In this document: piece after piece, positions 6,227 to 56,413 of the stretch
Layout: each line of letters opens with the position of its first letter
Numbering within the stretch: the stretch's first letter is position 1
Virus record (IMG/VR): IMGVR_UViG_3300032731_001452
Location: 1-64,000 of that record
DNA from: a virus
Strand: one strand, 5' to 3'
DNA: 64,000 nucleotides
The notes under the pieces: model-generated
Databases searched by the model: none
Told to the model about the DNA's origin: nothing
Seen by the model: only the letters and a program-made list of their open reading frames with translations
Translations under genes and position numbers: made by a program

Positions 6227-7911
6227 GTCTCAACACCTCGCATAAAGGGTAACGCGCGTAAGCTGGGAAGTAACGCGCGAACTTGACTTTTTTGGGTTAA
6301 TTGACGGTCTATCCACCGTATACCTGTACTGCCTGATTGCAAACGCTTGATTTGCAATCCTTGATGGTGTTCAGAAGCCACTTCAGAGGGAAGCATATCA
6401 TTCACTTGCCAAACGTAGCCAGTTGCGTCTGAAGCGAATCCGTCATCAAACGCTCTACGCACCATTTCAGCCATTCTCGCCGCCTTGGCTACGTCGTTTG
6501 CTACGCAAAAAGCTTCCCATTCGAACGTATCGTAGTTCGGCGCCTCTTCGACCCAACAAAGCCCTAAACTCCTGTTAGTAAAGGTACTTAGGGCGCCTCC
6601 ATGACGAATGTCATGGTTAACTACAGGGAACGTTAAGTCGATTTCTGGAACTTCCGGATCCACTAAAAACGGGTCCGAGCTAATCTTCACGGTTACATTT
6701 GCTTTATAGTGTACAACTACTTTTTGAGCGCCTGCTACAACAACAGTTGTAGTTATCGCCGCCCCGGACTGCGATGAAAAGATATCGGTTGTAGTATCTA
6801 CGTCTTGCATACCGCCTACGTAAACGTGTTCTACAACAGGGCTTTGTAATTTAGTTCGCAGCGTTATCTGATTCGTTCCATCGCCAGCTTCCAAGGCGCG
6901 ATAATATATATCACCAGTTCGTAAAAACCTTACAAGCGAACGCTTTAAATCATTTTCAAGGTTTACTTGTTCGATAAAGTCTACGGCACACACGACGCCG
7001 TACGCTTTTGGAGTTTGCGTATTATCGGTAGAAGCAACCAACTTACAACGAGTAGACCACGTCATATGGTCGTCGTAATCAGACGGAACTAGTAGACTGA
7101 TATAACGCTCGATTACCTGATGATGCGTCCATTCATCAGTAACCCACGCGGTACCATCCCACCCCAACCAACTCGTACCGTTATCTAACGATACTTGCCA
7201 CAATACTTCACCACCAACGGAAGCTGTTCGATTAAACCACGAATTCCCAACGTAGAAAGAAGCGGTGACGGCTGCCGGAAATGTTGCCTCGATATAAACC
7301 GTGTCAACTTTTGTTTCGTCAAAAGTACCAGTAGTACTAGTTGGTTTATCTATCTCAACTAAGATAACGTTCCAGTTATCCGTCAACGGAGAAAATACTT
7401 CGTACCGCGCAGAATCGCCGTCGCTGTCGTGTAGCTCAACAGAAAGTGTTACGGCGTTACTTGGGATGAATACATGAAATTCAAGCGTGTCGCTCTCAAG
7501 CAAGTTCCAAGCAACGGTTCGATAACAGCGCGCTGTTATAGAAGACGCGTCTTTTGTAACTTTCATTTCGGTACCGTACGTTCGGTACTCAAGTGAATGA
7601 CTAATCGTGACGGCGGCACTTCCAGGTGTCCAGTCCGACCAATTCGCAAATTGCTCGTCTTCGACCACGAATTCTTGATCAAACTCAACAGCCGGCTCGA
7701 AGGTATACGGTGGAAGTTGAAGCGCCCACCCAGAGAACTCAGGGAAGGTTAAGACGCCATCATCTTCGTACGGATCGACGGGGTTCCAAGCCAAAGCGGC
7801 TTGAACCCGCTTTAACGTAGCAACTTGCCCTTCCGAATCGCCTAGATCTCGCGAGATGACAACGTCGTCATCTACAGTGGCGTCGCGAATGGAATGGTCA
7901 AGAAACGGCAT
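6223..7911 (-). CDS. Large virion protein of the neck/tail-completion region
   Basis: 562 aa from ATG 7911 (MPFLDHSI), which follows the stop of the upstream gene by 2 nt. A longer reading from 7989 would overlap that gene by 75 nt, so I reject it. The sequence is beta-rich with repeated short strands (VEFHVFIP-like, VVVHYKANVTVKIS) and has a basic C-terminal tail. Its place between neck genes and sheath suggests a tail terminator, collar or accessory structural role. I do not recognise the family. Confidence 0.75.
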   Translation of the reverse strand: MPFLDHSIRDATVDDDVVISRDLGDSEGQVATLKRVQAALAWNPVDPYEDDGVLTFPEFSGWALQLPPYTFEPAVEFDQEFVVEDEQFANWSDWTPGSAAVTISHSLEYRTYGTEMKVTKDASSITARCYRTVAWNLLESDTLEFHVFIPSNAVTLSVELHDSDGDSARYEVFSPLTDNWNVILVEIDKPTSTTGTFDETKVDTVYIEATFPAAVTASFYVGNSWFNRTASVGGEVLWQVSLDNGTSWLGWDGTAWVTDEWTHHQVIERYISLLVPSDYDDHMTWSTRCKLVASTDNTQTPKAYGVVCAVDFIEQVNLENDLKRSLVRFLRTGDIYYRALEAGDGTNQITLRTKLQSPVVEHVYVGGMQDVDTTTDIFSSQSGAAITTTVVVAGAQKVVVHYKANVTVKISSDPFLVDPEVPEIDLTFPVVNHDIRHGGALSTFTNRSLGLCWVEEAPNYDTFEWEAFCVANDVAKAARMAEMVRRAFDDGFASDATGYVWQVNDMLPSEVASEHHQGLQIKRLQSGSTGIRWIDRQLTQKSQVRALLPSLRALPFMRGVET

Positions 7912-42146: not shown

Positions 42147-44447
42147 CTAGCTATCTTGCAACTTATCCATGATGGTTTCGCGAAGAGACTTAACGTCGTC
42201 GGGGTGTTCGCGAAGATACTGGATGGTAGCCTCGCGACCGTTACCAATCCGATCCCCACCGTAACTATGCCAGTTACCGCTCTTCTCAATGAGATCAAAC
42301 TCAAGAGCTAAATCAAGCGTCTCACAAAGCTGATCGATGCCGCGACCGAAGATAAGATCAACCTCAGCTAGACCAAACGGCGGGGCGAGCTTGTTTTTGA
42401 CCACGCGTAACTTCAGTCGATTACCGATTCGAGTCTCACCCTTCTTGATGCCACCTAAGATACGAACGTCAATTCGAACCGACGAATAAAAACGAAGCGC
42501 CTTCCCGCCGCTGGTCGTCTCGGGATTTCCAAAACCACCCGTTCCGATCTTGAGTCGTGTTTGGTTAATGAAAATCACCATCGTTTTCGTCGTTCGCGTG
42601 TTAGCCACGAGCTTACGTAGTGCCTGACTCATCAGCCGGGCCTGTAGCCCTGGTAGGCTATCTCCCATGTCACCGGCTAATTCGGCTTTTGGAGTCAACG
42701 CTGATACCGAATCAACAACGATGATGTCAATTGCGCCGGATCGAACAAGAGTGTCGACAATCTCCAACGCTTGCTCGCCGTAATCCGGTTGGCTGATTAG
42801 CATCTCTTCGACGTTAACGCCCACGCCTTTCGCGAGCGAAGGATCGAGAGCTTGTTCGGCGTCGATAAAAGCAGCAATACCGCCCTGCTTTTGAACCTCT
42901 GCAATTGTGTGAAGTGCGAGGGTGGTATTGTGCGTCACGAATCCGTTAGCGTTAAGCGATGCGGTTTGCTCCATCGCGAAGTCAAACGTCGGTTCGGGCT
43001 CGTTCTCCGTTACGCTTTCAACCCGATCGTAGTAATACCAACGCTTACGAATCTCCGCTAATCTAGCTAAGATGATTGGATCGCCAATCTCTTTGAAAGC
43101 CTCCGAAATCAATTCAAGACGGTTGTACGTAACGAGCGCGCGTGGGGACGGCGCCATATAACAATCCATGAGGACGTTAAGCTCGCGGTTAGTCTCGGCG
43201 GAATCGTACAAATCTCGTAAAAGACCCCCTAAGCAAGGAATGGAATCATGGTTTGTTGAACCACCGTCTCCGTGTAATCGCAAAAGTTCGTCATGTTTCT
43301 TCGCTCGGGATGAAGATCTAGTTCCCACCACTTGAATGAATTTACGAGCTGCATCACCAGCCATCGTTAACTGCCAATAATTATTATTGGGGTACTCCGC
43401 AACATGTTTATCGCGCAGTAAACCAATGATACCGAATCGTAGTTGGAGTAAGAGCTTTACGTCATCCAATAATTCGCGGCTAGCCGACACGGTTTCAATA
43501 CACATCTTACTCGGGTGGATAAAACACTCACAATCAAAATACCCACGAAGTACCTCAAGAAGCGCGGCGTCATTGAGTCGACGAACTCGAGAGCCGACGA
43601 TTTTATCTGGGCTATTACAAGGTTCCCACCCCCAAGATTCGTAAAATTTCGCAGCCGCTTCTACGCTGTTGAAGTGATAATTTATCGACGCGGTGTTACT
43701 TCCGCTCGGATAAACTTTTGGCTCCACACCGAAAATCGAAGACCCTACTCGTGCAATAAACTCCTTGATATCCGGATCGTCATTTGTAAGCCCGAGTCGA
43801 ACACGATTGAAATGACCGTCCGCGAGGCTTAATCCAGCAAAATAAGCCTCGTCCGCATTACAAGCCATCATAAATTCGTGATTACGAACAATCTCACGAT
43901 CGCTCACGAGGTAATCACCAACCTCAAGTTGTTTAACTTGCTTCCATACCCAAAAACCATTCTTGCTCATAACAAGTTGCGGCTGATTAGCGGTTGGACG
44001 AATGTGAGCACCGGAGAACGAACGGATGGTAAAAGTGGGTTTACGGTTGTTGTGAGTGAAATGCGTCGTTTCTTCGATTTCACCGTTTCGGTTGTACAAA
44101 GGAAATTCCGACGCTGTCGTTCGATTGGTACAGGTTGCTTTCAAACCCTGCATTTTGAATATTTCACCGATAGTCAACAAACCATATGGAGTTCCAATTC
44201 GGGTGTCCGCGGGTAGACACTTACCGCTTGATTCTGGGCCAAATATCTCGATTACACGACCACGCGGAAACCCACCAATATGTAACTCGTGGTCAAGCTT
44301 CATTGAGCCGGTGGTTACGACGTCAACGTCCATGGGCTTATCGCCCATTTTCATAATCGCGCCCTTGCCGTACAGCTTCTCGATATCCTTCAACGCTTGT
44401 TCGTAACCAAACCCAACCGGCTTACTTTCTTTCTTTTTCTTTGCCAC
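42147..44447 (-). CDS. recA: RecA recombinase interrupted by an intein
   Basis: 766 aa precursor. Residues 1-76 and 508-766 together give a 335-aa RecA: Walker A GPESSGK then TTLALH, Walker [12 protein letters not shown]2 region [15 protein letters not shown]. After splicing it would form filaments on single-stranded DNA for repair and recombination-driven replication. The intein splits the P-loop exactly between Lys76 and Thr508. The gene starts 25 nt inside the preceding membrane-protein gene. The RecA lacks the long acidic C-tail of bacterial RecA (ends MDKLQDS). Confidence 0.96.
42927..44219 (-). mobile_element. Intein in RecA P-loop, LAGLIDADG type
   Basis: 431 aa, residues 77-507. Block A begins [19 protein letters not shown]; block B is near [14 protein letters not shown] (with a Thr/His-type block lacking the usual T-x-x-H order); the end is NGFVTHN followed by Thr. 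Cys1 and His-Asn at the end are present; the +1 residue is Thr. Endonuclease blocks: [12 protein letters not shown] (good) and [12 protein letters not shown] (Asp then Glu in place of D-A-D-G), so homing activity is plausible but weakened. Confidence 0.93.
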
Positions 44448-44927: not shown

Positions 44928-44952
44928 AAAAGTTTGCGGCTTGCAAACTTTT
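44928..44952 (-). terminator. Dispersed hairpin repeat, copy 4
   Basis: Exact copy. It starts with the last base of the recQ stop codon and ends before the promoter of the next gene, a terminator-promoter pair. The bases after it on the minus strand (GGTTTTGT) are shared with copy 5. Confidence 0.8.
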
Positions 44953-47894
44953 CAACTTCGACAAATATCGCACGTTCCGCACGTCCAGTCCGCCGGTTTG
45001 GATACATCACCGAAGTAGTCGAGAATCTGCTTTCGACGACACTTCGGTGTTTCGCAGAAGTCGATGATTTGCTGGACAAGCAGCTTAGCCATCCGACGTC
45101 GCTTGTCGATCTCAACCCAATCCATGGCGTCGTCGATGTCTTTCACTTCGATGAGCTTCACGCCACCGCTACGTTGCGGTGGCTTATACTCGATCGCCAC
45201 GTTATTGAGGCTCCGCAAAGCCGCGGAGACGTGCTTCTTCTCCATCTCGAGCGCCTTCGCCATGTCAATGGTAGACACCTCAAACCACACGTGCTTTACG
45301 ACACGCATTTCTTGCAGGTACTCAAGTACTTCCGCGGCTCGACCGCGGAACTTCTTCTTGGGTTCGATATGCGCCACTTCGCCGATATCGTTGGCGCGGA
45401 ACTTGCGAACCACACCAGCCTTGAGCATGAAGTTCCAAACAGCGCCGATGTGGGCGTCTTGAATCCATTCGCCGATTTCAGCGGCAAAAGCACCCTGCGA
45501 AACGAACAGCTCGCCGCTAGGAATGTTACTGAGCCGTCGAATCGTATGTTCGTAGACAGCTCGGATAACGCCGTCAGGCGGCCACGACATTGCTACGAAG
45601 AAATCCTGAAGCGAACGGTCACCCGGTCGATACAGCAACGCTACGCGAGAAGGCTCGCCGTCACGACCGGCACGACCAATCTCTTGGTAGTAAGCCTCAA
45701 CGGAACCCGGCATTTGCATATGCGCGATACCGCGGATATTGGATTTATCGACGCCCATCCCAAACGCGTTCGTGGCCACGATGAGCTGCGCTTCATCATT
45801 CATGAAAGCGTCTTGTACCGCCGTGCGTTTCTGCGCGGTCATTCCGCCGTGGTACGGTTTTGCCTTGAAGCCTGAACTACACAAAACGTCGGCGGTTTCT
45901 TCAACTTGCGAACGAGTTCCGCAGTACACAATCATCGAACCTTCGACGTTGTCGACGAACTCAAAGAGGGCGTCCAACTTCTGCGGTCCGTAAGTTTTGA
46001 TTATGTCGATCTCGAGGTTGGGCCGATCGAATCCATGAACGAGTACGTTGGCGTTCTTCATCTCGAGCTGTTCCGCGATATCTTCACGAACCACCGCGGT
46101 CGCTGTTGCGGTAACGGCGAGACAAGTGGGGTTACCAAGCTGCTTTCGAACGTTAGCTAACTGCAAATACTTCGGCCTGAAGTCGTGACCCCACTTACTG
46201 ATACAATGAGATTCGTCGATAGCTAACAGCGACACCTCAACGTCCAACTTACGCATGAACGTAGCCGTCAAACCTTCAGGTGCAATGAACAACGTCTTGA
46301 TTCTACCCTCGTTTACGTTGACGATGGTAGCTTCTCGCGTGGCGTCGTTCATGGTGCTGTTGTAAGCTGACGCTGGAATGTTCAACTTCAACAAACCATC
46401 AACTTGGTCTTTCATGAGGCTGATGAGTGGGCTGATAACGATCGTGAGACCTGGAAGCATGAGTGAGGGGATCTGGTACGTCAGAGAGTTATGTAAAACA
46501 AACTCATCAGCAACAAAACTAGCCTTAAATCCATTGTTTTGACTTTCGATAACAACGTCAAAAGTTTCTTTTTCTTCTACTGGTCCAAGATATTTTATCT
46601 CATCCCAGAAAATATCATTCTTGGATAATAAATGACATTCGAAACCTTCAATGCGACCACTTCTTTTAGCAAACATCTCGCGACTCATTCGGCGAGAATT
46701 TTTAAGATAGAAGGAACTGTCGAATACGTACGTCTTACTAAGCTTAACGAGACGCCTATCTCTATCCAACAAGTCCCAGTAGGAATAAGGAACGACATCG
46801 ACGTTGGTGTTGGACTCGCTACTCTCCAACTTTCCCCACAACGCTCGGAAAGAATGAAATTTCTTACCAACTAACCACGGTTGGATAAGTTCGTTAAAGA
46901 TTGCCAGGTCACCATGACCCGAAATAGACAAGATCCAACTATCTCTAACGCCGCCTTGATACTTAGCGAGTTTGTATCGAAAACGAGACAAAATTCCGCA
47001 TCGTAAAAACAAGTGTTGTAGTTGTTTGATTAACGCCTTAGAAGCCGATGTATATGCTACCGAATGCTCCTCAATCCACCCACCACCTGAAATTACTCTA
47101 CCTAAAAATCTACAAACCTGATCGGTAGACGTAAGAAACAATTGGCTAGGAACCACCCTGCTTGGCGAATGAACGCCTAATAATCCGTACTTTTTCAACA
47201 ACAAATTCAAAGGGTTGCTACTAGCTCCAGCTTTTCCGTCTCGTCTACCCGGACGGGTGGTTGCGGATAGCTGCATTGAGCGTCCATTATACCATGGCGT
47301 ACACCCTAAACTCGTAGTTAGGCAGCTACACAAATCCAGCAAGTCTTGATCTGCTTTGGTGTAATTAGGCGTTTGGCTGTAACGACTAGAACCATCGCAT
47401 AGCATCAATGCGATTATGTCTAATTCAACTTCTGGAATGAGTTGCGAACCATTCAGGTCAAACGAACGAGGCGTGGCTATAAGCTGACCCTCAACCAAAT
47501 CTCGAACGGTTTGTTCGCCTCGGCCTGTAAATACTCGATGCTCCAAGGAAAGCCAAGTTTTCCTCCCGGAGCGTAGCCTAATCCACTTACCTTTCTTAAC
47601 GCCACTAAGGATTACCTCCAAGGGCTTCACAATTCTTTGATATCCGCATTGATCGTGCGACACAACTTCAAACGGAATCCCAGCTTCCCATCGCCTATAC
47701 AACTCTCTGCCTGACACCACTTCGCCAGTGGATAACGGAACCTGAGCGTCGAGATGAACGCACTTTCCCGCGCCGGTTGGCGTTACAAATAACGTATCTC
47801 TACCAGAAAGAATCGACTCAATCGTTTCAAGCTGACCGTCACGGAATGACGAGAAACCAAACCACTTCTCTAGAACTTCGATAGGATCGTTCAT
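44952..47894 (-). CDS. recQ: RecQ-family helicase interrupted by an intein
   Basis: 980 aa precursor from ATG 47894 (site AAGGCGG); a GTG two codons earlier is less likely. Mature helicase of about 555 aa: FGFSSFRDGQLETIESIL (motif 0), P-loop FVTPTGAGK then SLTYQIP, DEAH-box form LLAIDESHCISKWGHDFRP, motif VI QEIGRAGRDG, and a zinc-binding part (CETPKCRRKQILDYFGD, CGTCDIC). It unwinds DNA 3'-5' in repair and fork restart. The neighbour is recA, also intein-split. Confidence 0.96.
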   Translation of the reverse strand: MNDPIEVLEKWFGFSSFRDGQLETIESILSGRDTLFVTPTGAGKCVHLDAQVPLSTGEVVSGRELYRRWEAGIPFEVVSHDQCGYQRIVKPLEVILSGVKKGKWIRLRSGRKTWLSLEHRVFTGRGEQTVRDLVEGQLIATPRSFDLNGSQLIPEVELDIIALMLCDGSSRYSQTPNYTKADQDLLDLCSCLTTSLGCTPWYNGRSMQLSATTRPGRRDGKAGASSNPLNLLLKKYGLLGVHSPSRVVPSQLFLTSTDQVCRFLGRVISGGGWIEEHSVAYTSASKALIKQLQHLFLRCGILSRFRYKLAKYQGGVRDSWILSISGHGDLAIFNELIQPWLVGKKFHSFRALWGKLESSESNTNVDVVPYSYWDLLDRDRRLVKLSKTYVFDSSFYLKNSRRMSREMFAKRSGRIEGFECHLLSKNDIFWDEIKYLGPVEEKETFDVVIESQNNGFKASFVADEFVLHNSLTYQIPSLMLPGLTIVISPLISLMKDQVDGLLKLNIPASAYNSTMNDATREATIVNVNEGRIKTLFIAPEGLTATFMRKLDVEVSLLAIDESHCISKWGHDFRPKYLQLANVRKQLGNPTCLAVTATATAVVREDIAEQLEMKNANVLVHGFDRPNLEIDIIKTYGPQKLDALFEFVDNVEGSMIVYCGTRSQVEETADVLCSSGFKAKPYHGGMTAQKRTAVQDAFMNDEAQLIVATNAFGMGVDKSNIRGIAHMQMPGSVEAYYQEIGRAGRDGEPSRVALLYRPGDRSLQDFFVAMSWPPDGVIRAVYEHTIRRLSNIPSGELFVSQGAFAAEIGEWIQDAHIGAVWNFMLKAGVVRKFRANDIGEVAHIEPKKKFRGRAAEVLEYLQEMRVVKHVWFEVSTIDMAKALEMEKKHVSAALRSLNNVAIEYKPPQRSGGVKLIEVKDIDDAMDWVEIDKRRRMAKLLVQQIIDFCETPKCRRKQILDYFGDVSKPADWTCGTCDICRS
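46488..47762 (-). mobile_element. Intein in RecQ P-loop, degenerate LAGLIDADG
   Basis: 425 aa between P-loop Lys and Ser. Starts CVHLDAQVPLSTGEVVSGRE, has block B-like SLEHRVFTG, and ends FVADEFVLHN followed by Ser. Cys1, the HN end and Ser+1 are all intact, so splicing should work. Endonuclease blocks: IIALMLCDGSS (partly normal) and FLGRVISGGGWI, where the catalytic Asp is Gly, so cutting is probably lost. Confidence 0.93.
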
Positions 47895-47914
47895 GAACAC
47901 CGCCTTCGAGGTGA

Positions 47915-47985: not shown

Positions 47986-48058
47986 GGGCGTGTAGTTCAG
48001 TGGAGAACGGTGGGAGTTCAGGCCCGCGTCGGTGTGGGTTCGACTCCCGCCACGCTCA
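47986..48058 (+). tRNA. tRNA with an apparent 8-nt anticodon loop
   Basis: Acceptor GGGCGTG/CACGCTC (one G-U), D-stem GTTC/GAAC, T-arm GTGGG-TTCGACT-CCCGC and discriminator A are good. The anticodon stem GTGGG/CCCGC closes AGTTCAGG, 8 nt rather than 7, and the variable loop is 6 nt. The anticodon could be TTC (Glu) or TCA. No CCA is encoded, unlike the minus-strand tRNAs. Could be a frameshift-suppressing or non-functional tRNA. Confidence 0.65.
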
Positions 48059-50238: not shown

Positions 50239-51474
50239 CTACTCTGGGAGAAGGTGCGCCCAGTGCCACTCCTTGTCGGCGAAAACAGCTTTGGCATACT
50301 CAACGATTTCGCTGTACTCCATAGCTTGAAGCGTTTCCATGTACTTGGCGCGCGTAACTACCGGATCTTCCGCCCCCATCTCGTAGTAGTACCCTAACAC
50401 CCCGGCGTACGTCGCTACGTTTTCTTGGCTACGCGCTATGCTCGTGAGCATCGTTTCGCGCGAGATTACGAACCGATCTTCCGTAATCAGGTTTTCGAAA
50501 TCTTCCAAGATGCTTTTGATTTCAGCTTCCAGTTCTTCCATTTGATCGGGCGCAATACCCGCTTCGATGCACTTCGCGTTGTAGATCGGGTCGTTGAGAT
50601 GATAGGCGTACAAGCCGTAACAACTCATCCCCTTTTCCTTGCGAATTCGCTCAAACAGAAGCGCCGAGCTACCGCCGCCCAGCATATTAGTGACGACGTC
50701 GTCATGGACCCACTTCGCGCTATCGAATCGCTCTGCGTCCTGGAACGCCAGGAGACGACCTTCTTGAAGGTTGGGGCGTGACTTCCAACGCGAACCAATC
50801 TCAGGGCTTAACGGCGCCGCTTCCAGTTCCGCCAAAGCCTCCTTGGAATTCTCGAGGGTGGCATCCGGCATCTCTCTGAATAGCTCAGCAAAGAACGAGG
50901 GGTCGTCTTCATCCACGTCGCCAACCGCCAAGATGTACACGTTCGGCTTGCCGTACCAACGCTTACGGAAATCATCTAGAGACGCTCTATCAAATGACTT
51001 GATGCTTTCTTCGGTTCCGATAACCGAATGCATTAACGAACCGAAAACGTCTTCTGCGGTAGTTCCCCAGAAATCACCGCGAACGTTATCTAGCCCGCGA
51101 CGATATTCCGATAGGATTACATCCTTTTCCTTCAACCATTCAGCTTCCGGAATCGAAGCGTTAAGGAACATGTCAGCCAAAATTTTGGCGGCTTCTTGCC
51201 AGTTTTCATTGCGCGCGTCTACCCAGTAAAACGTATGTTGATAATTCGTTCCGGCGTTGTTGGTAGCGCCGAGTCTAGCGGTATCACGGTCGATTTCCAT
51301 ATCGTTCCGCGAAGGTGTTCCCTTAAACATCATATGCTCGAGCGCGTGCGCTAAGCCGTATTCTTCTAGACGCTCGTGCGCGGAACCTACTTTCACGCGA
51401 ACTGAAACATTGGTGAAAGGTGCGTGATGCTTGTGCAACAGAATGGGTAAACCGTCAACGTTGTGAATTTTCAT
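50239..51474 (-). CDS. M16-family zinc metallopeptidase
   Basis: 411 aa, the size of a bacterial processing-peptidase-type M16 subunit. The inverted zinc motif HALEH (His43, Glu46, His47) sits in GLAHALEHMMFKGTPSR, with the distant Glu ligand likely in VILSEYRRGLDN. Later blocks (WYGKPNVYILAVGDVDE, MLGGGSSALLFERIRKEKG, CYGLYAYHL) are the family's second domain. M16 enzymes degrade small peptides in a closed chamber. Such genes are rare in phages. Promoter GCTACAAT at 51494, site GGAGTACCC. Confidence 0.93.
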   Translation of the reverse strand: MKIHNVDGLPILLHKHHAPFTNVSVRVKVGSAHERLEEYGLAHALEHMMFKGTPSRNDMEIDRDTARLGATNNAGTNYQHTFYWVDARNENWQEAAKILADMFLNASIPEAEWLKEKDVILSEYRRGLDNVRGDFWGTTAEDVFGSLMHSVIGTEESIKSFDRASLDDFRKRWYGKPNVYILAVGDVDEDDPSFFAELFREMPDATLENSKEALAELEAAPLSPEIGSRWKSRPNLQEGRLLAFQDAERFDSAKWVHDDVVTNMLGGGSSALLFERIRKEKGMSCYGLYAYHLNDPIYNAKCIEAGIAPDQMEELEAEIKSILEDFENLITEDRFVISRETMLTSIARSQENVATYAGVLGYYYEMGAEDPVVTRAKYMETLQAMEYSEIVEYAKAVFADKEWHWAHLLPE

Positions 51475-53426: not shown

Positions 53427-53738
53427 CTAACTCTTTGTGGCGTCGAGATCGAAAACTGGATTACCGCTGAACTGGACGCCGGTCAAAACGATTCGCATCA
53501 AATTCTCATCGTCGTGATGGCGCGAAATACCGTAGCCGGTAAACTTCCCGTCGTACGCGAACTTTTGCCGATTCGGAACGACTCGAATCAATCCTTCACC
53601 CGGAAGATCATCGGGTAGTTCATCCATGAGGTTGACGTGCTTCACCAACTCAAGGGTGTCGCCGTTTGTCTTGACAGACTTGAATCCAACGGCCTTGCCG
53701 TTGATAGTTACCGCAAAGTTGTAACCTTTGATGATCAT
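53427..53738 (-). CDS. Hypothetical beta protein
   Basis: 103 aa from ATG 53738 (MIIKGYNFAVTING), preceded by TTGGAGATTATC. Beta-rich N-terminal half and a conserved-looking end (NPVFDLDATKS). Follows a 150-nt structured leader. No family recognised. Confidence 0.7.
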   Translation of the reverse strand: MIIKGYNFAVTINGKAVGFKSVKTNGDTLELVKHVNLMDELPDDLPGEGLIRVVPNRQKFAYDGKFTGYGISRHHDDENLMRIVLTGVQFSGNPVFDLDATKS

Positions 53739-53754
53739 GATAATCTCCAAATCA

Positions 53755-53905
53755 AAAATGAGCGCCTAACAGCTGGCACGCGGGAGAGTTGATCAAGCTC
53801 TCAGAAACAATGACCTTTACCGCGCCTGTGTCTAGGGTGGTCGAACCCTCAAGGTTCCTGGTTTGCGCTCGGTAATACGAACCCTTTTTCCATAAGTTGA
53901 TTATA
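53755..53905 (-). ncRNA. Structured 5' leader with a 14-codon frame
   Basis: Begins after the -10 GCTATAAT at 53900. An outer helix pairs TTACC and GCGC with GCGC and GGTAA near its ends, enclosing hairpin AGGGT-TCGACC-ACCCT; a second hairpin is GAGAG/CTCTC. ATG 53893, 6 nt after the -10, opens a 14-codon frame (MEKGFVLPSANQEP) that runs into the outer helix. Looks like a regulated leader or small RNA. Confidence 0.4.
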
Positions 53906-53916
53906 GCGGTTGAACT

Positions 53917-54108
53917 TTAAGATTCAGCGCAACTCGAGGGAGATACGCTGTTGTCGACGATCGTCATTACCCCACACCGTTTGCAATTTGGGGATTTTGT
54001 CGTAGGCAACACGAACACAGCCTTACTGCACGAAGGACGCCTAAAATACGAAGCTAGCGCCGGCATAAGGTCGTCTTCGTTAAACGTTTTCGTTCGCTGT
54101 TTACTCAT
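53917..54108 (-). CDS. Small protein with a C-x2-C pair
   Basis: 63 aa from ATG 54108 (MSKQRTKTFNEDD). C-terminal part has SPNCKRCGVMTIVDNS, a possible zinc site. A longer reading to 54174 would run through the hairpin repeat and is not favoured. No ribosome site is obvious. Confidence 0.5.
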   Translation of the reverse strand: MSKQRTKTFNEDDLMPALASYFRRPSCSKAVFVLPTTKSPNCKRCGVMTIVDNSVSPSSCAES

Positions 54109-54129
54109 TTCGCGATTCGGTACAAAACC

Positions 54130-54154
54130 AAAAGTTTGCGGCTTGCAAACTTTT
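54130..54154 (-). terminator. Dispersed hairpin repeat, copy 5
   Basis: Exact copy, at the 3' end of the structured RNA that follows tmRNA on the minus strand. Flank GGTTTTGT is shared with copy 4. Confidence 0.7.
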
Positions 54155-54159
54155 GAAAA

Positions 54160-54535
54160 GTGCGAGCTTTCCACTCGCTGGGTACGGAATCTCTTCCCTT
54201 TCCATGAACAATAGGTCAGGAGGCGGGTATCTAATCCGCTCTTTTATTCGAGACGTCCGTACTCTGGATGGGCCGCGGACGAGTTCTTATCCTCTTAGTC
54301 ACCACAATCGGGACTCGGGAGGTATAGAGTGCGATTTCGCCCCATCCCAGTTTCGCTGTTCGTTACTCTCATCCTGCGAAACAAAAATCGTCAGCCACGG
54401 ATAATCTTGCGTACATCCCGTTACCCCGACCGTTCCTGCTGACACTACGCTGGCGACTTTGTCCCTCTTTGCGTAGTTATCACAATTGCCAAATTATGAT
54501 GTTTGTAATCACTGTTAGCTAACTGTAATTAGTTC
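54160..54535 (-). ncRNA. Unidentified structured RNA with a 16S 790-loop-like hairpin
   Basis: About 370 nt without a credible protein gene, between tmRNA and hairpin copy 5. Perfect helices: ACTACGC/GCGTAGT (54444-54450 with 54471-54477), TTTCGC/GCGAAA (54351-54356 with 54376-54381), CGTCCG/CGGACG (54254-54259 with 54276-54281). At 54225-54237 the minus strand reads GGATTAGATACCC, the universal 16S rRNA 790-loop sequence, in a GCGG/CCGC hairpin. No other rRNA similarity is visible. Confidence 0.5.
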
Positions 54536-54877
54536 TGGTGGACTCGGCGGGAGTCGAACCCGCGTGTCACGTGTTTTCGCAAGACGTCTACGTAGTCTAG
54601 CTCATCTACCCTCAGAGCGGGGTTTGTCGGAACTTTCCCCGACGGTCAACAACTCTTTATTTCAAGGTAACTTCGGTTGCCTAAGTTTCACCTCTATCGC
54701 CGTGTCGTTATGCCTTTTCTCGCTACCCAGCGAATTCTCGCAAGAAAGACACCCGGGCTCACACGGTCCCGGGAAGCAACAGCTTACGCTGCGGCCTGAA
54801 GAGGAGTTTCGTCAACTCGTTTTCATTTTACTACGCAATCTTGGTTGCAATCACCCGATCGAAACCGTTACGAGCCC
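54536..54877 (-). ncRNA. ssrA: Transfer-messenger RNA (tmRNA)
   Basis: 342 nt. 5' end GGGCTCG pairs with CGAGTCC at the 3' end; then GTAACGGTTTCGATCGGG corresponds to the usual 'ctgATTCTGGaTTCGAcggg'. The T-arm is GCGGG-TTCGACT-CCCGC, with discriminator A and encoded CCA. The tag frame ends DETPLQAAA then TAA at 54784-54786, with GAGTT just before, like the 'UAGUC' before the resume codon. Pseudoknot-rich middle. It would rescue stalled ribosomes and tag products for decay. Confidence 0.88.
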
Positions 54878-54888
54878 ATTTCAAAGAT

Positions 54889-55002
54889 CTATCGTTCTTC
54901 CAATGTAAAGACTCTCAAGCCGATCCTCAAGGTGCTACTCGAGAAATCCCCAACGCCTTTGCCTGCCCGCTTCACGATCTCGAAAACTGTTGTCGAAACC
55001 AT
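54889..55002 (-). CDS. Possible 37-aa protein between tmRNA and large RNA
   Basis: Frame MVSTTVFEIVKRAGKGVGDF continuing to TLEER, with an open extension upstream (QLSARYLLDGPW). Composition looks protein-like but there is no clear ribosome site and it ends 11 nt before tmRNA. It could equally be RNA sequence. Confidence 0.3.
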   Translation of the reverse strand: MVSTTVFEIVKRAGKGVGDFSSSTLRIGLRVFTLEER

Positions 55003-55049
55003 CCACGGGCCATCCAGCAAATAGCGCGCGCTAAGTTGCTTGAAAGCCT

Positions 55050-55975
55050 TTAGATTGAAAGAACACGAACAATTTTTCGGCCACCCGGGACTCCCCTATG
55101 GGCGGGCGGCCACCCCAGAGAATACCCCCGGGGAATACTTGAGCAGTGTTTACAACAGCATGCTCAGGCTGGGCTCATATGCTCACGACTTTCAACTACC
55201 AAGTCTAGCAAATCTGCCAACGGTTTCCGCAATTTTTGGCAGCTACGCTTCTTCGCGTTCTTCGGTGCGCACTGGCAACCGAATTACTTGGTCGGTTTTG
55301 CCCACCCCACCGACCAAAGGGTTAAACAACTACTGAGCTTAAGAGGTGGACCAAGTTAAGCTCCGGGCAGCTCCAAGACCGTAGCCCGGGAGCGCCCCAA
55401 GATCGCTCTTGGGGGATGAAAAGTGCTGAGCTAGGTACTCAGCGTGGAGACCTTCCGTCTCTTTGGGTAGTTATACCGTATTTATTTCGTCAAAGCCCTC
55501 TACACTACCAGAGGTACTAAGCTATCTACTAGTTCATGAGGACAGTAGCTGCCCGGTGCCGGCAATCATGTGGCCTAGCCACCAGCAGGAGTTCTCATCC
55601 TACAGACCACTTACGGATGAGGTGTCTAAATTTGCCAGGTCTAGGACCATCAGCCCGGCTGAGGCGCATGCCATTATGCTAACTAGCCCTGCCTTAGTTT
55701 TCATCAACGTTAGTGTCAGCGACTAACGCAGACTACAGTCACTTTTATACCCGGTGACTACAGGCTGAACACGCATGGGGCGTGGTTCATCTAAAAACGA
55801 TTGCAGCCAGGATTTTCACCTGGAACCCAAGGTTTCCTCCGTCTTTCAACGGACTATTACTCACACGTAGCTTAGGTTTGCATCAATTCCTCCGAATTTA
55901 ATCGGTCTACAATCAAACTTCCAACGTTCACGCAACCTTTTGCGTCAACGTTTTATTATAGTTTCAAACAACTGA
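55050..55975 (-). ncRNA. Giant structured RNA of unknown class (GOLLD/ROOL-like context)
   Basis: About 925 nt with no credible gene on either strand and many perfect helices. Examples (plus coordinates): 55288-55296/55309-55317 (9 bp), 55395-55402/55407-55414 (8 bp with a GNRA loop GCGA on the RNA), 55425-55430/55438-55443, 55447-55451/55457-55461, 55594-55600/55615-55621 (7 bp), 55708-55714/55722-55728 (7 bp), 55737-55742/55754-55759. Near the 5' end, GATTGTAG (55907-55914) pairs with CTGCAATC (55799-55806), next to a T-arm-like hairpin CCAGG/CCTGG. Size, ornate folding and a place beside tmRNA and tRNAs fit the large phage RNAs GOLLD and ROOL; I cannot match it to either by sequence. Confidence 0.65.
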
Positions 55976-55980
55976 GATAG

Positions 55981-56010
55981 GTTATAGCATCGACTAGCTA
56001 GCTGCGTCAA
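55981..56010 (-). promoter_or_regulatory. Promoter of the giant RNA
   Basis: Minus strand TTGACG, 18-nt spacer, TATAAC with extended TGC. Transcription would begin near 55975. A second TATAAT at about 55960 may add to it. Confidence 0.65.
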
Positions 56011-56014
56011 GGAC

Positions 56015-56413
56015 CTAATCGTCTTTTTCTGGCCACCCCAAAGCACGCATCGCCGGACGACTCATTAGGCGGCCTTGAAGCCCGTGAATGTCGTGACAAG
56101 TCTCTTCATCATCCATCGGGTGAAGCTTCGGAAGCGCGAAGATTCGCGTAGCCGCTTCGGTAACAGCATCCAACGCTTCGATCTCTTGATCGTTCATGCC
56201 TGCGTCTTGTAAGCACTGAAGATCCTTGGGTACGCCACCTTCCTTGAGTCGAAGACGATCGTCAAGCTCGACGTAGGCTTTGATCCACGTTTCAGCCCAC
56301 TCCATCAATTCCTTACGAGCTGCGTATTGCACGTGTTCTGATTCGCGCGGCACTAACTGAAGCTTCTCGATAAGTTCGCGAAACTGGCGTAACGGTTCGT
56401 CAATGTTTCTCAT
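56015..56413 (-). CDS. Hypothetical helical protein
   Basis: 132 aa from ATG 56413 (MRNIDEPLRQF); reading further upstream would run into tRNA-Gln. TATAAT ends 6 nt before the ATG and no ribosome site exists, so a leaderless message is likely, unless it is read from the tRNA transcript. Helical throughout, with ETCHDIHG near the end. No family recognised. Confidence 0.75.
   Translation of the reverse strand: MRNIDEPLRQFRELIEKLQLVPRESEHVQYAARKELMEWAETWIKAYVELDDRLRLKEGGVPKDLQCLQDAGMNDQEIEALDAVTEAATRIFALPKLHPMDDEETCHDIHGLQGRLMSRPAMRALGWPEKDD

What the first reader, a model, noticed from the sequence alone, without database searches (positions are those of the whole stretch)
55050..55975. Undescribed giant structured RNA next to a phage tmRNA
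Nearly 1 kb with no gene but more than ten perfect 5-9 bp hairpins, one with a GNRA loop, behind a good promoter. Known giant phage RNAs (GOLLD, ROOL) lie near tRNAs and tmRNA in the same way and form large cages. This may be one of them or a new class.
Basis: partly seen in the sequence, partly recalled or inferred. Interest (0 to 1): 0.85.

Follow-up and report, generated by a model that had tools for sequence, protein, structure and literature searches.

The report
Giant structured RNA around phage tmRNA
A virus of bacteria carries about 1.8 kb of gene-free, heavily folded RNA sequence wrapped around its tmRNA gene; it fits no known RNA family and is a new candidate for the giant phage RNAs whose purpose nobody knows, but no relatives were found, so the claim rests on one sequence.

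Summary
In this 69-kb phage contig, coding signal is absent from about 53,780 to 56,015. On the minus strand the block holds an ~890-nt ornate stretch (RNA1, 55955-55064), a strongly self-paired 167-nt domain (55062-54896), a one-piece tmRNA (54877-54536) and a ~400-nt structured trailer (RNA2, 54530-54128) that ends at a terminator-like hairpin the phage reuses elsewhere. RNA1 folds better than its shuffles (z -3.8 to -5.2), as well as a real ROOL RNA (z -4.6) and better than 14 same-size windows of the phage. The 167-nt domain is exceptional and strand-specific (z -6.5 minus, -1.2 plus). GOLLD and ROOL covariance models do not match; a ROOL positive control does. No homologue turned up in phage records, IMG/VR, GTDB contigs or plasmids with the searches available, so covariation, the decisive test, could not be run. 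Best reading: a stable-RNA precursor in which a giant structured RNA of no described class is made together with tmRNA. Transcription, processing and any particle are inferred, the last only by analogy.

The parts
55955..55960 (-). TATAAT, -10-like box without a -35 box; possible start of the unit
   Evidence: sequence; not reported by the consensus scan
55064..55955 (-). RNA1: ~890-nt noncoding structured stretch (the finding)
   Evidence: z -4.6, hairpin excess, no coding signal, robust helices listed
55799..55914 (-). Closed multi-branch domain of RNA1: 8-bp closing stem, three arms, one with a GAAA loop
   Evidence: fold z -3.38, 0 of 200 shuffles as good
55352..55462 (-). Run of four strong hairpins in RNA1, one with a GCGA loop (55414-55395)
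   Evidence: fold z -3.32
55078..55133 (-). Two G+C-rich hairpins near the 3' end of RNA1
   Evidence: the 79-nt stretch containing them folds with z -2.17
54896..55062 (-). 167-nt closed domain with a terminal stem of 24 pairs in 25 positions, directly 5' of the tmRNA; candidate processing stem
   Evidence: z -6.51 on minus, -1.20 on plus; lowest of 386 sampled windows elsewhere -5.4
54536..54877 (-). One-piece tmRNA
   Evidence: RF00023, 56.1 bits, model positions 1-374
54784..54822 (-). tmRNA tag frame KRVDETPLQAAA*
   Evidence: translation; frame chosen by eye
54128..54530 (-). RNA2: structured trailer
   Evidence: z -4.02 on minus, -4.45 on plus; 49% of nucleotides in pairs of probability >=0.85
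54129..54155 (-). Terminator-like hairpin at the 3' end of the unit, a dispersed palindrome of this phage
   Evidence: structure excess stops here (z -1.17 beyond it)
54995..55017 (-). 5' arm of a possible long-range helix across the tmRNA (partner 54264-54286); competes with the 167-nt domain
   Evidence: 0 of 300 shuffles as good, but 2 of 73 genomic controls: suggestive only
54264..54286 (-). 3' arm of that possible long-range helix

Best explanation
The minus strand from about 55,950 to 54,128 is one noncoding transcription unit of the phage. It carries a giant structured RNA (RNA1), a long self-paired domain, an intact-looking tmRNA and a structured trailer (RNA2), and ends at a phage terminator-like hairpin. 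Most likely mechanism: (1) the unit is transcribed during infection as one precursor; (2) the 24-bp stem of the 167-nt domain just 5' of the tmRNA is cut by a host double-strand nuclease such as RNase III, which separates tmRNA from RNA1, and tmRNA then works with host SmpB; (3) RNA1, possibly with RNA2, persists as an abundant folded RNA that works like GOLLD and ROOL, which occupy the same niche next to tRNA genes in phages. Shown here: noncoding status, structure beyond chance, the strand of the 167-nt domain, the tmRNA and a terminator-like end. Inferred: transcription, processing, persistence of RNA1 and any particle.
For: No coding signal from 53,780 to 56,015. RNA1 z -3.8 to -5.2 against -3.1 to +0.3 in 14 control windows. 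By the same script a genuine ROOL locus gives z -4.6 and RNA1 -4.6; 54896-55955 together gives -6.9. The 167-nt domain is strand-specific, z -6.5 against -1.2, on the strand of the tmRNA, of six tRNAs and of the flanking genes. RNA2 z -4.0, and the excess stops at the terminator-like hairpin. Full-length tmRNA match; no SmpB in the record. Rfam gives no match to rRNA, introns, riboswitches, GOLLD or ROOL.
Against: No homologue, hence no covariation. RNA1 and RNA2 fold as well on the plus strand as on the minus, so for them the strand rests on the neighbours. The promoter is only a -10 box. Parts of RNA1 (about 55,450-55,700) show no excess in 150-nt windows. No expression data.
Confidence: 0.55

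Rival explanations
1. RNA1 and RNA2 are only the leader and trailer of the tmRNA precursor: an elaborate processing or regulatory 5' region that is discarded after tmRNA maturation, with no function as a free RNA.
For: Same strand, contiguous with the tmRNA; the strongest structure is the stem domain directly 5' of it; no independent terminator between RNA1 and tmRNA.
Against: About 890 nt of structure upstream of that stem is far more than processing needs (inference from known tmRNA precursors), and it folds as well as a ROOL RNA.
Confidence: 0.2
2. RNA1 is a divergent member of GOLLD or ROOL, too far for the Rfam models.
For: Phage, tRNA and tmRNA neighbourhood, size, GNRA hairpins, equal folding excess.
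Against: No match at E<=10 to RF02032 or RF03087 or in permissive scans; ROOL control works. No GOLLD positive control was run.
Confidence: 0.08
3. The block acts as DNA: a replication origin, packaging or recombination site rich in hairpins, or a spacer that stays because it holds such signals.
For: RNA1 and RNA2 have equal folding excess on both strands; no -35 box.
Against: The 167-nt domain is strongly strand-specific through G-U pairs; no iterons or tandem direct repeats, only short scattered two-copy matches; a tmRNA sits inside the block.
Confidence: 0.09
4. Decayed genes (old tRNAs, tmRNA copies or proteins) with chance structure.
For: tRNA-rich region, HNH endonuclease nearby, no homologues.
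Against: RNA1 against tmRNA alignment is at chance level; no tRNA remnants in permissive Rfam scans; z -6.9 for 54896-55955 is not expected of decayed sequence.
Confidence: 0.08

Closest known systems
GOLLD RNA (Rfam RF02032)
   Same: Giant noncoding RNA of phages and prophages, often near tRNA genes, many members over 800 nt; tRNAs sometimes lie in its linker (PMC12286853)
   Different: No match to the covariance model in this record up to E=10; the neighbour here is a tmRNA; no covariation or cage evidence
ROOL RNA (Rfam RF03087)
   Same: Large ornate RNA of phages and prophages near tRNA islands, also on the megaplasmid pMP118; single-sequence folding excess the same (z -4.6 and -4.6)
   Different: No match up to E=10, whereas the true ROOL on pMP118 is found with 130 bits; RNA1 is longer and tmRNA-linked
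Phage-encoded tmRNA (RF00023), e.g. phage Melnitz (PMC9004378)
   Same: A phage with its own tmRNA, an uncommon feature (2.3% of phage genomes in that survey)
   Different: Melnitz has a two-piece tmRNA with a glutamine riboswitch; here it is one piece, flanked by ~1.1 kb and ~0.4 kb of structured sequence that matches no family

Membership tests
GOLLD | Match to the GOLLD covariance model RF02032 | tested here: not met
   No match at E<=10 in G000, none in permissive scans; no GOLLD positive control was run
GOLLD | Located in a phage near tRNA-type genes | tested here: met
   tmRNA adjacent, six minus-strand tRNAs within 5 kb
GOLLD | Covariation-supported structure and multimeric cage | not testable with these tools
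   no homologues found; the cage needs cryo-EM
ROOL | Match to the ROOL covariance model RF03087 | tested here: not met
   No match at E<=10; positive control 130.4 bits in pMP118
ROOL | Stable, highly abundant RNA | not testable with these tools
   no expression data
Ornate large structured RNA (loose kind, not a family) | Long noncoding region folding well beyond shuffled sequence | tested here: met
Ornate large structured RNA (loose kind, not a family) | Covarying base pairs across homologues | not testable with these tools
   no homologues
tmRNA (54877-54536) | Full-length covariance match, tRNA-like ends with CCA, tag reading frame | tested here: met
   56.1 bits over model positions 1-374; tag frame KRVDETPLQAAA*; ARAGORN does not call it
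Ribosomal RNA, group I or II intron, riboswitch | Rfam match | tested here: not met
   permissive scans gave only chance-level hits such as c-di-GMP-I-GGC at 16.9 bits

The most novel reading that the evidence does not exclude
An undescribed class of giant phage RNA in which a tmRNA is built into the middle of a ~1.8-kb ornate RNA, so that ribosome rescue and a structural RNA particle are made, and perhaps assembled, together.
Probability: 0.25. Interest if true: 0.85.

Novelty: new variant of a known kind. Interest (0 to 1): 0.58.

Why it matters
GOLLD and ROOL are among the largest structured bacterial and phage RNAs, form RNA-only cages, and have no known function (PMC12286853). A third giant RNA in the same niche, unrelated by sequence and physically linked to tmRNA, would suggest that phages evolved such RNAs repeatedly around translation genes, and would point to ribosome rescue or translation as the place to look for their function.

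Tried and rejected
Protein-coding: rejected by codon score and family searches. GOLLD, ROOL, rRNA, introns, riboswitches: no Rfam match. The 16S-like string GGATTAGATACCC in RNA2, noticed by eye, is part of a small hairpin with no rRNA match around it. RNA1 as a second or decayed tmRNA: local alignment to the tmRNA is at chance level. Shared segment ATAACTAC(C/G)CAAAGAG between RNA1 and RNA2: weak, 4 of 200 shuffles as good. Long-range helix across the tmRNA: only suggestive. Two early scripts timed out (in part, 25).

Homologue searches that led nowhere: blastn on phages and plasmids; neighbour gene, terminase, capsid, M16 peptidase and RecQ proteins in IMG/VR; terminase in GTDB contigs; translated RNA patterns in IMG/VR and GTDB; a tmRNA 3'-end pattern in IMG/VR, which gave unrelated tmRNAs and tRNAs; single-sequence covariance models of two domains over 50 held sources. 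The one close relative (terminase 88% identical, L035) is a 17-kb fragment that does not reach this region. L041's apparent 3.2-kb gap beside its tmRNA is probably genes that read TGA as sense, not RNA.

Full report
What was checked. The window is part of a 69,217-base virus record. The phage has tail-sheath, portal and capsid genes and no close relative among named phages; its terminase is 28.5% identical to the best listed match, a Gordonia phage. The finding lies between a 132-aa gene (56015-56413, minus) and a tmRNA (54877-54536, minus). ARAGORN reports no tmRNA, but the Rfam match covers the whole model, the acceptor arms pair over 7 bp with a G-U at the third pair, CCA is encoded (sequence), and a tag frame KRVDETPLQAAA* is present. 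The record has no SmpB gene.

Is it noncoding? A codon-usage score trained on the phage's own long genes gives 0.15-0.48 bits per codon for neighbouring and other genes, and below 0.08 for the open frames tested between 53,780 and 56,015; in sliding windows the only scores near 0.2 there are in frames with stops. The two 87-98-aa plus-strand ORFs and the others tested hit nothing credible in Pfam or PHROGs. The gene-free block is therefore about 2.2 kb, more than twice the finding, with the tmRNA in its middle.

Is the structure beyond chance? The reported interval has 23 perfect hairpins (stem >=5 bp) against 14.2 +/- 2.8 in shuffles on the minus strand. Its folding energy is z -3.8 (minus) and -4.1 (plus); in a rerun with fewer shuffles it was -5.2, and 14 same-length windows elsewhere in the phage gave -3.1 to +0.3. 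As a yardstick, the ROOL locus of pMP118, found by the same Rfam library at 130 bits, gives z -4.6 by the same script, and RNA1 trimmed to 55955-55064 gives -4.6. Windows of 150 nt show that the excess is uneven: strongest at 55,350-55,500 and 55,050-55,200, absent around 55,450-55,700.

Beyond the reported interval. Directly upstream of the tmRNA, 55062-54896 folds into a closed 167-nt domain with a terminal stem of 24 pairs in 25 positions: -72.9 kcal/mol, z -6.51, none of 200 shuffles as good. The complementary strand gives only z -1.20, because several of the pairs are G-U. The domain was picked from the best fold of the block, so it is a selected example; but among 386 windows of that size sampled over both strands the lowest z was -5.4. 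This is the best single piece of evidence for selection at the RNA level, and it sets the strand as minus. Downstream of the tmRNA, 54530-54128 folds with z -4.02, with half of its nucleotides in pairs of probability >=0.85. It ends in the hairpin CAAAAGTTTGC-AAGCC-GCAAACTTTTG followed by GTTTTG. The 21-nt core of this hairpin occurs six times exactly and once as a variant in the phage, for instance behind RecQ. Past it the excess is gone (z -1.17), so the unit has a recognisable 3' end.

The 5' end is less certain. TATAAT is present at 55960-55955 (minus) but without a -35 box, and the consensus scan does not report it. A phage-specific promoter-like motif, CRNCYGCTATMAT, occurs four times where 0.03 are expected, always on the minus strand. 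One copy (56432-56420) precedes the gene upstream of RNA1 and another (53912-53900) follows the unit. RNA1 could be transcribed from its own -10 box or by read-through from 56,420.

Comparison with known families. GOLLD (RF02032) and ROOL (RF03087) do not match anywhere in the record up to E=10; the GOLLD accession in the finding is wrong. Permissive Rfam scans of the block give only the tmRNA, a tRNA and chance-level hits. The resemblance to GOLLD and ROOL is one of genomic niche, size and folding density, not of family. The 2025 cryo-EM paper notes that GOLLD linkers sometimes hold tRNAs and that the linker lies inside the cage (PMC12286853). A tmRNA between RNA1 and RNA2 invites the same idea, but nothing here tests it.

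Homologues. All searches came back empty (listed under tried and rejected). The one close relative by terminase, a 17-kb contig 74% identical in DNA over 13.7 kb, ends before this region. The collection searches need near-exact stretches of DNA or peptide, so a homologue at 60-75% identity could be missed. The absence of relatives is a limit of the test, not evidence of uniqueness.

Verdict. A noncoding, strongly structured RNA unit around a phage tmRNA is well supported by sequence alone. That RNA1 is a functional giant RNA of a new class, as opposed to an elaborate tmRNA leader, is the favoured reading but not shown. Cage formation is speculation by analogy.

Noticed in passing
window 2294, 21218, 29418, 44930, 54132, 62713 and record position 67916: Dispersed palindrome AAGTTTGCGGCTTGCAAACTT, six exact copies and one variant (62713), some placed like terminators behind genes and some inside reading frames; a variant is in the relative L035 at 6483-6507.
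   Followed up: partly
window 47915, 49693, 53900, 56420 (minus), also 44904: Promoter-like motif CRNCYGCTATMAT, four copies where 0.03 are expected, all minus strand, upstream of minus-strand genes.
   Followed up: partly
window 42147-44447 and 44952-47900 (minus): Phage RecA and RecQ genes are both interrupted by inteins with LAGLIDADG endonuclease domains.
   Followed up: no
window 47986-48058 (+): The only plus-strand tRNA is given a four-base anticodon (ttca) by ARAGORN; possibly a UGA-reading or frameshifting tRNA.
   Followed up: no
window 50239-51474 (minus): Phage-encoded M16 family peptidase, with distant relatives in several other IMG/VR contigs.
   Followed up: no
window 53780-53895 (minus): Leader of the gene at 53738 holds a short ORF and a hairpin GAGGGTTCGACCACCCT behind the promoter-like motif at 53900.
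   Followed up: no
L050 174-755 (minus): Unusually long tmRNA (582 nt) in a 57-kb phage contig, not called by ARAGORN.
   Followed up: no
L041 2100-5200: Phage contig with a one-piece tmRNA whose neighbouring genes seem to read TGA as a sense codon.
   Followed up: no
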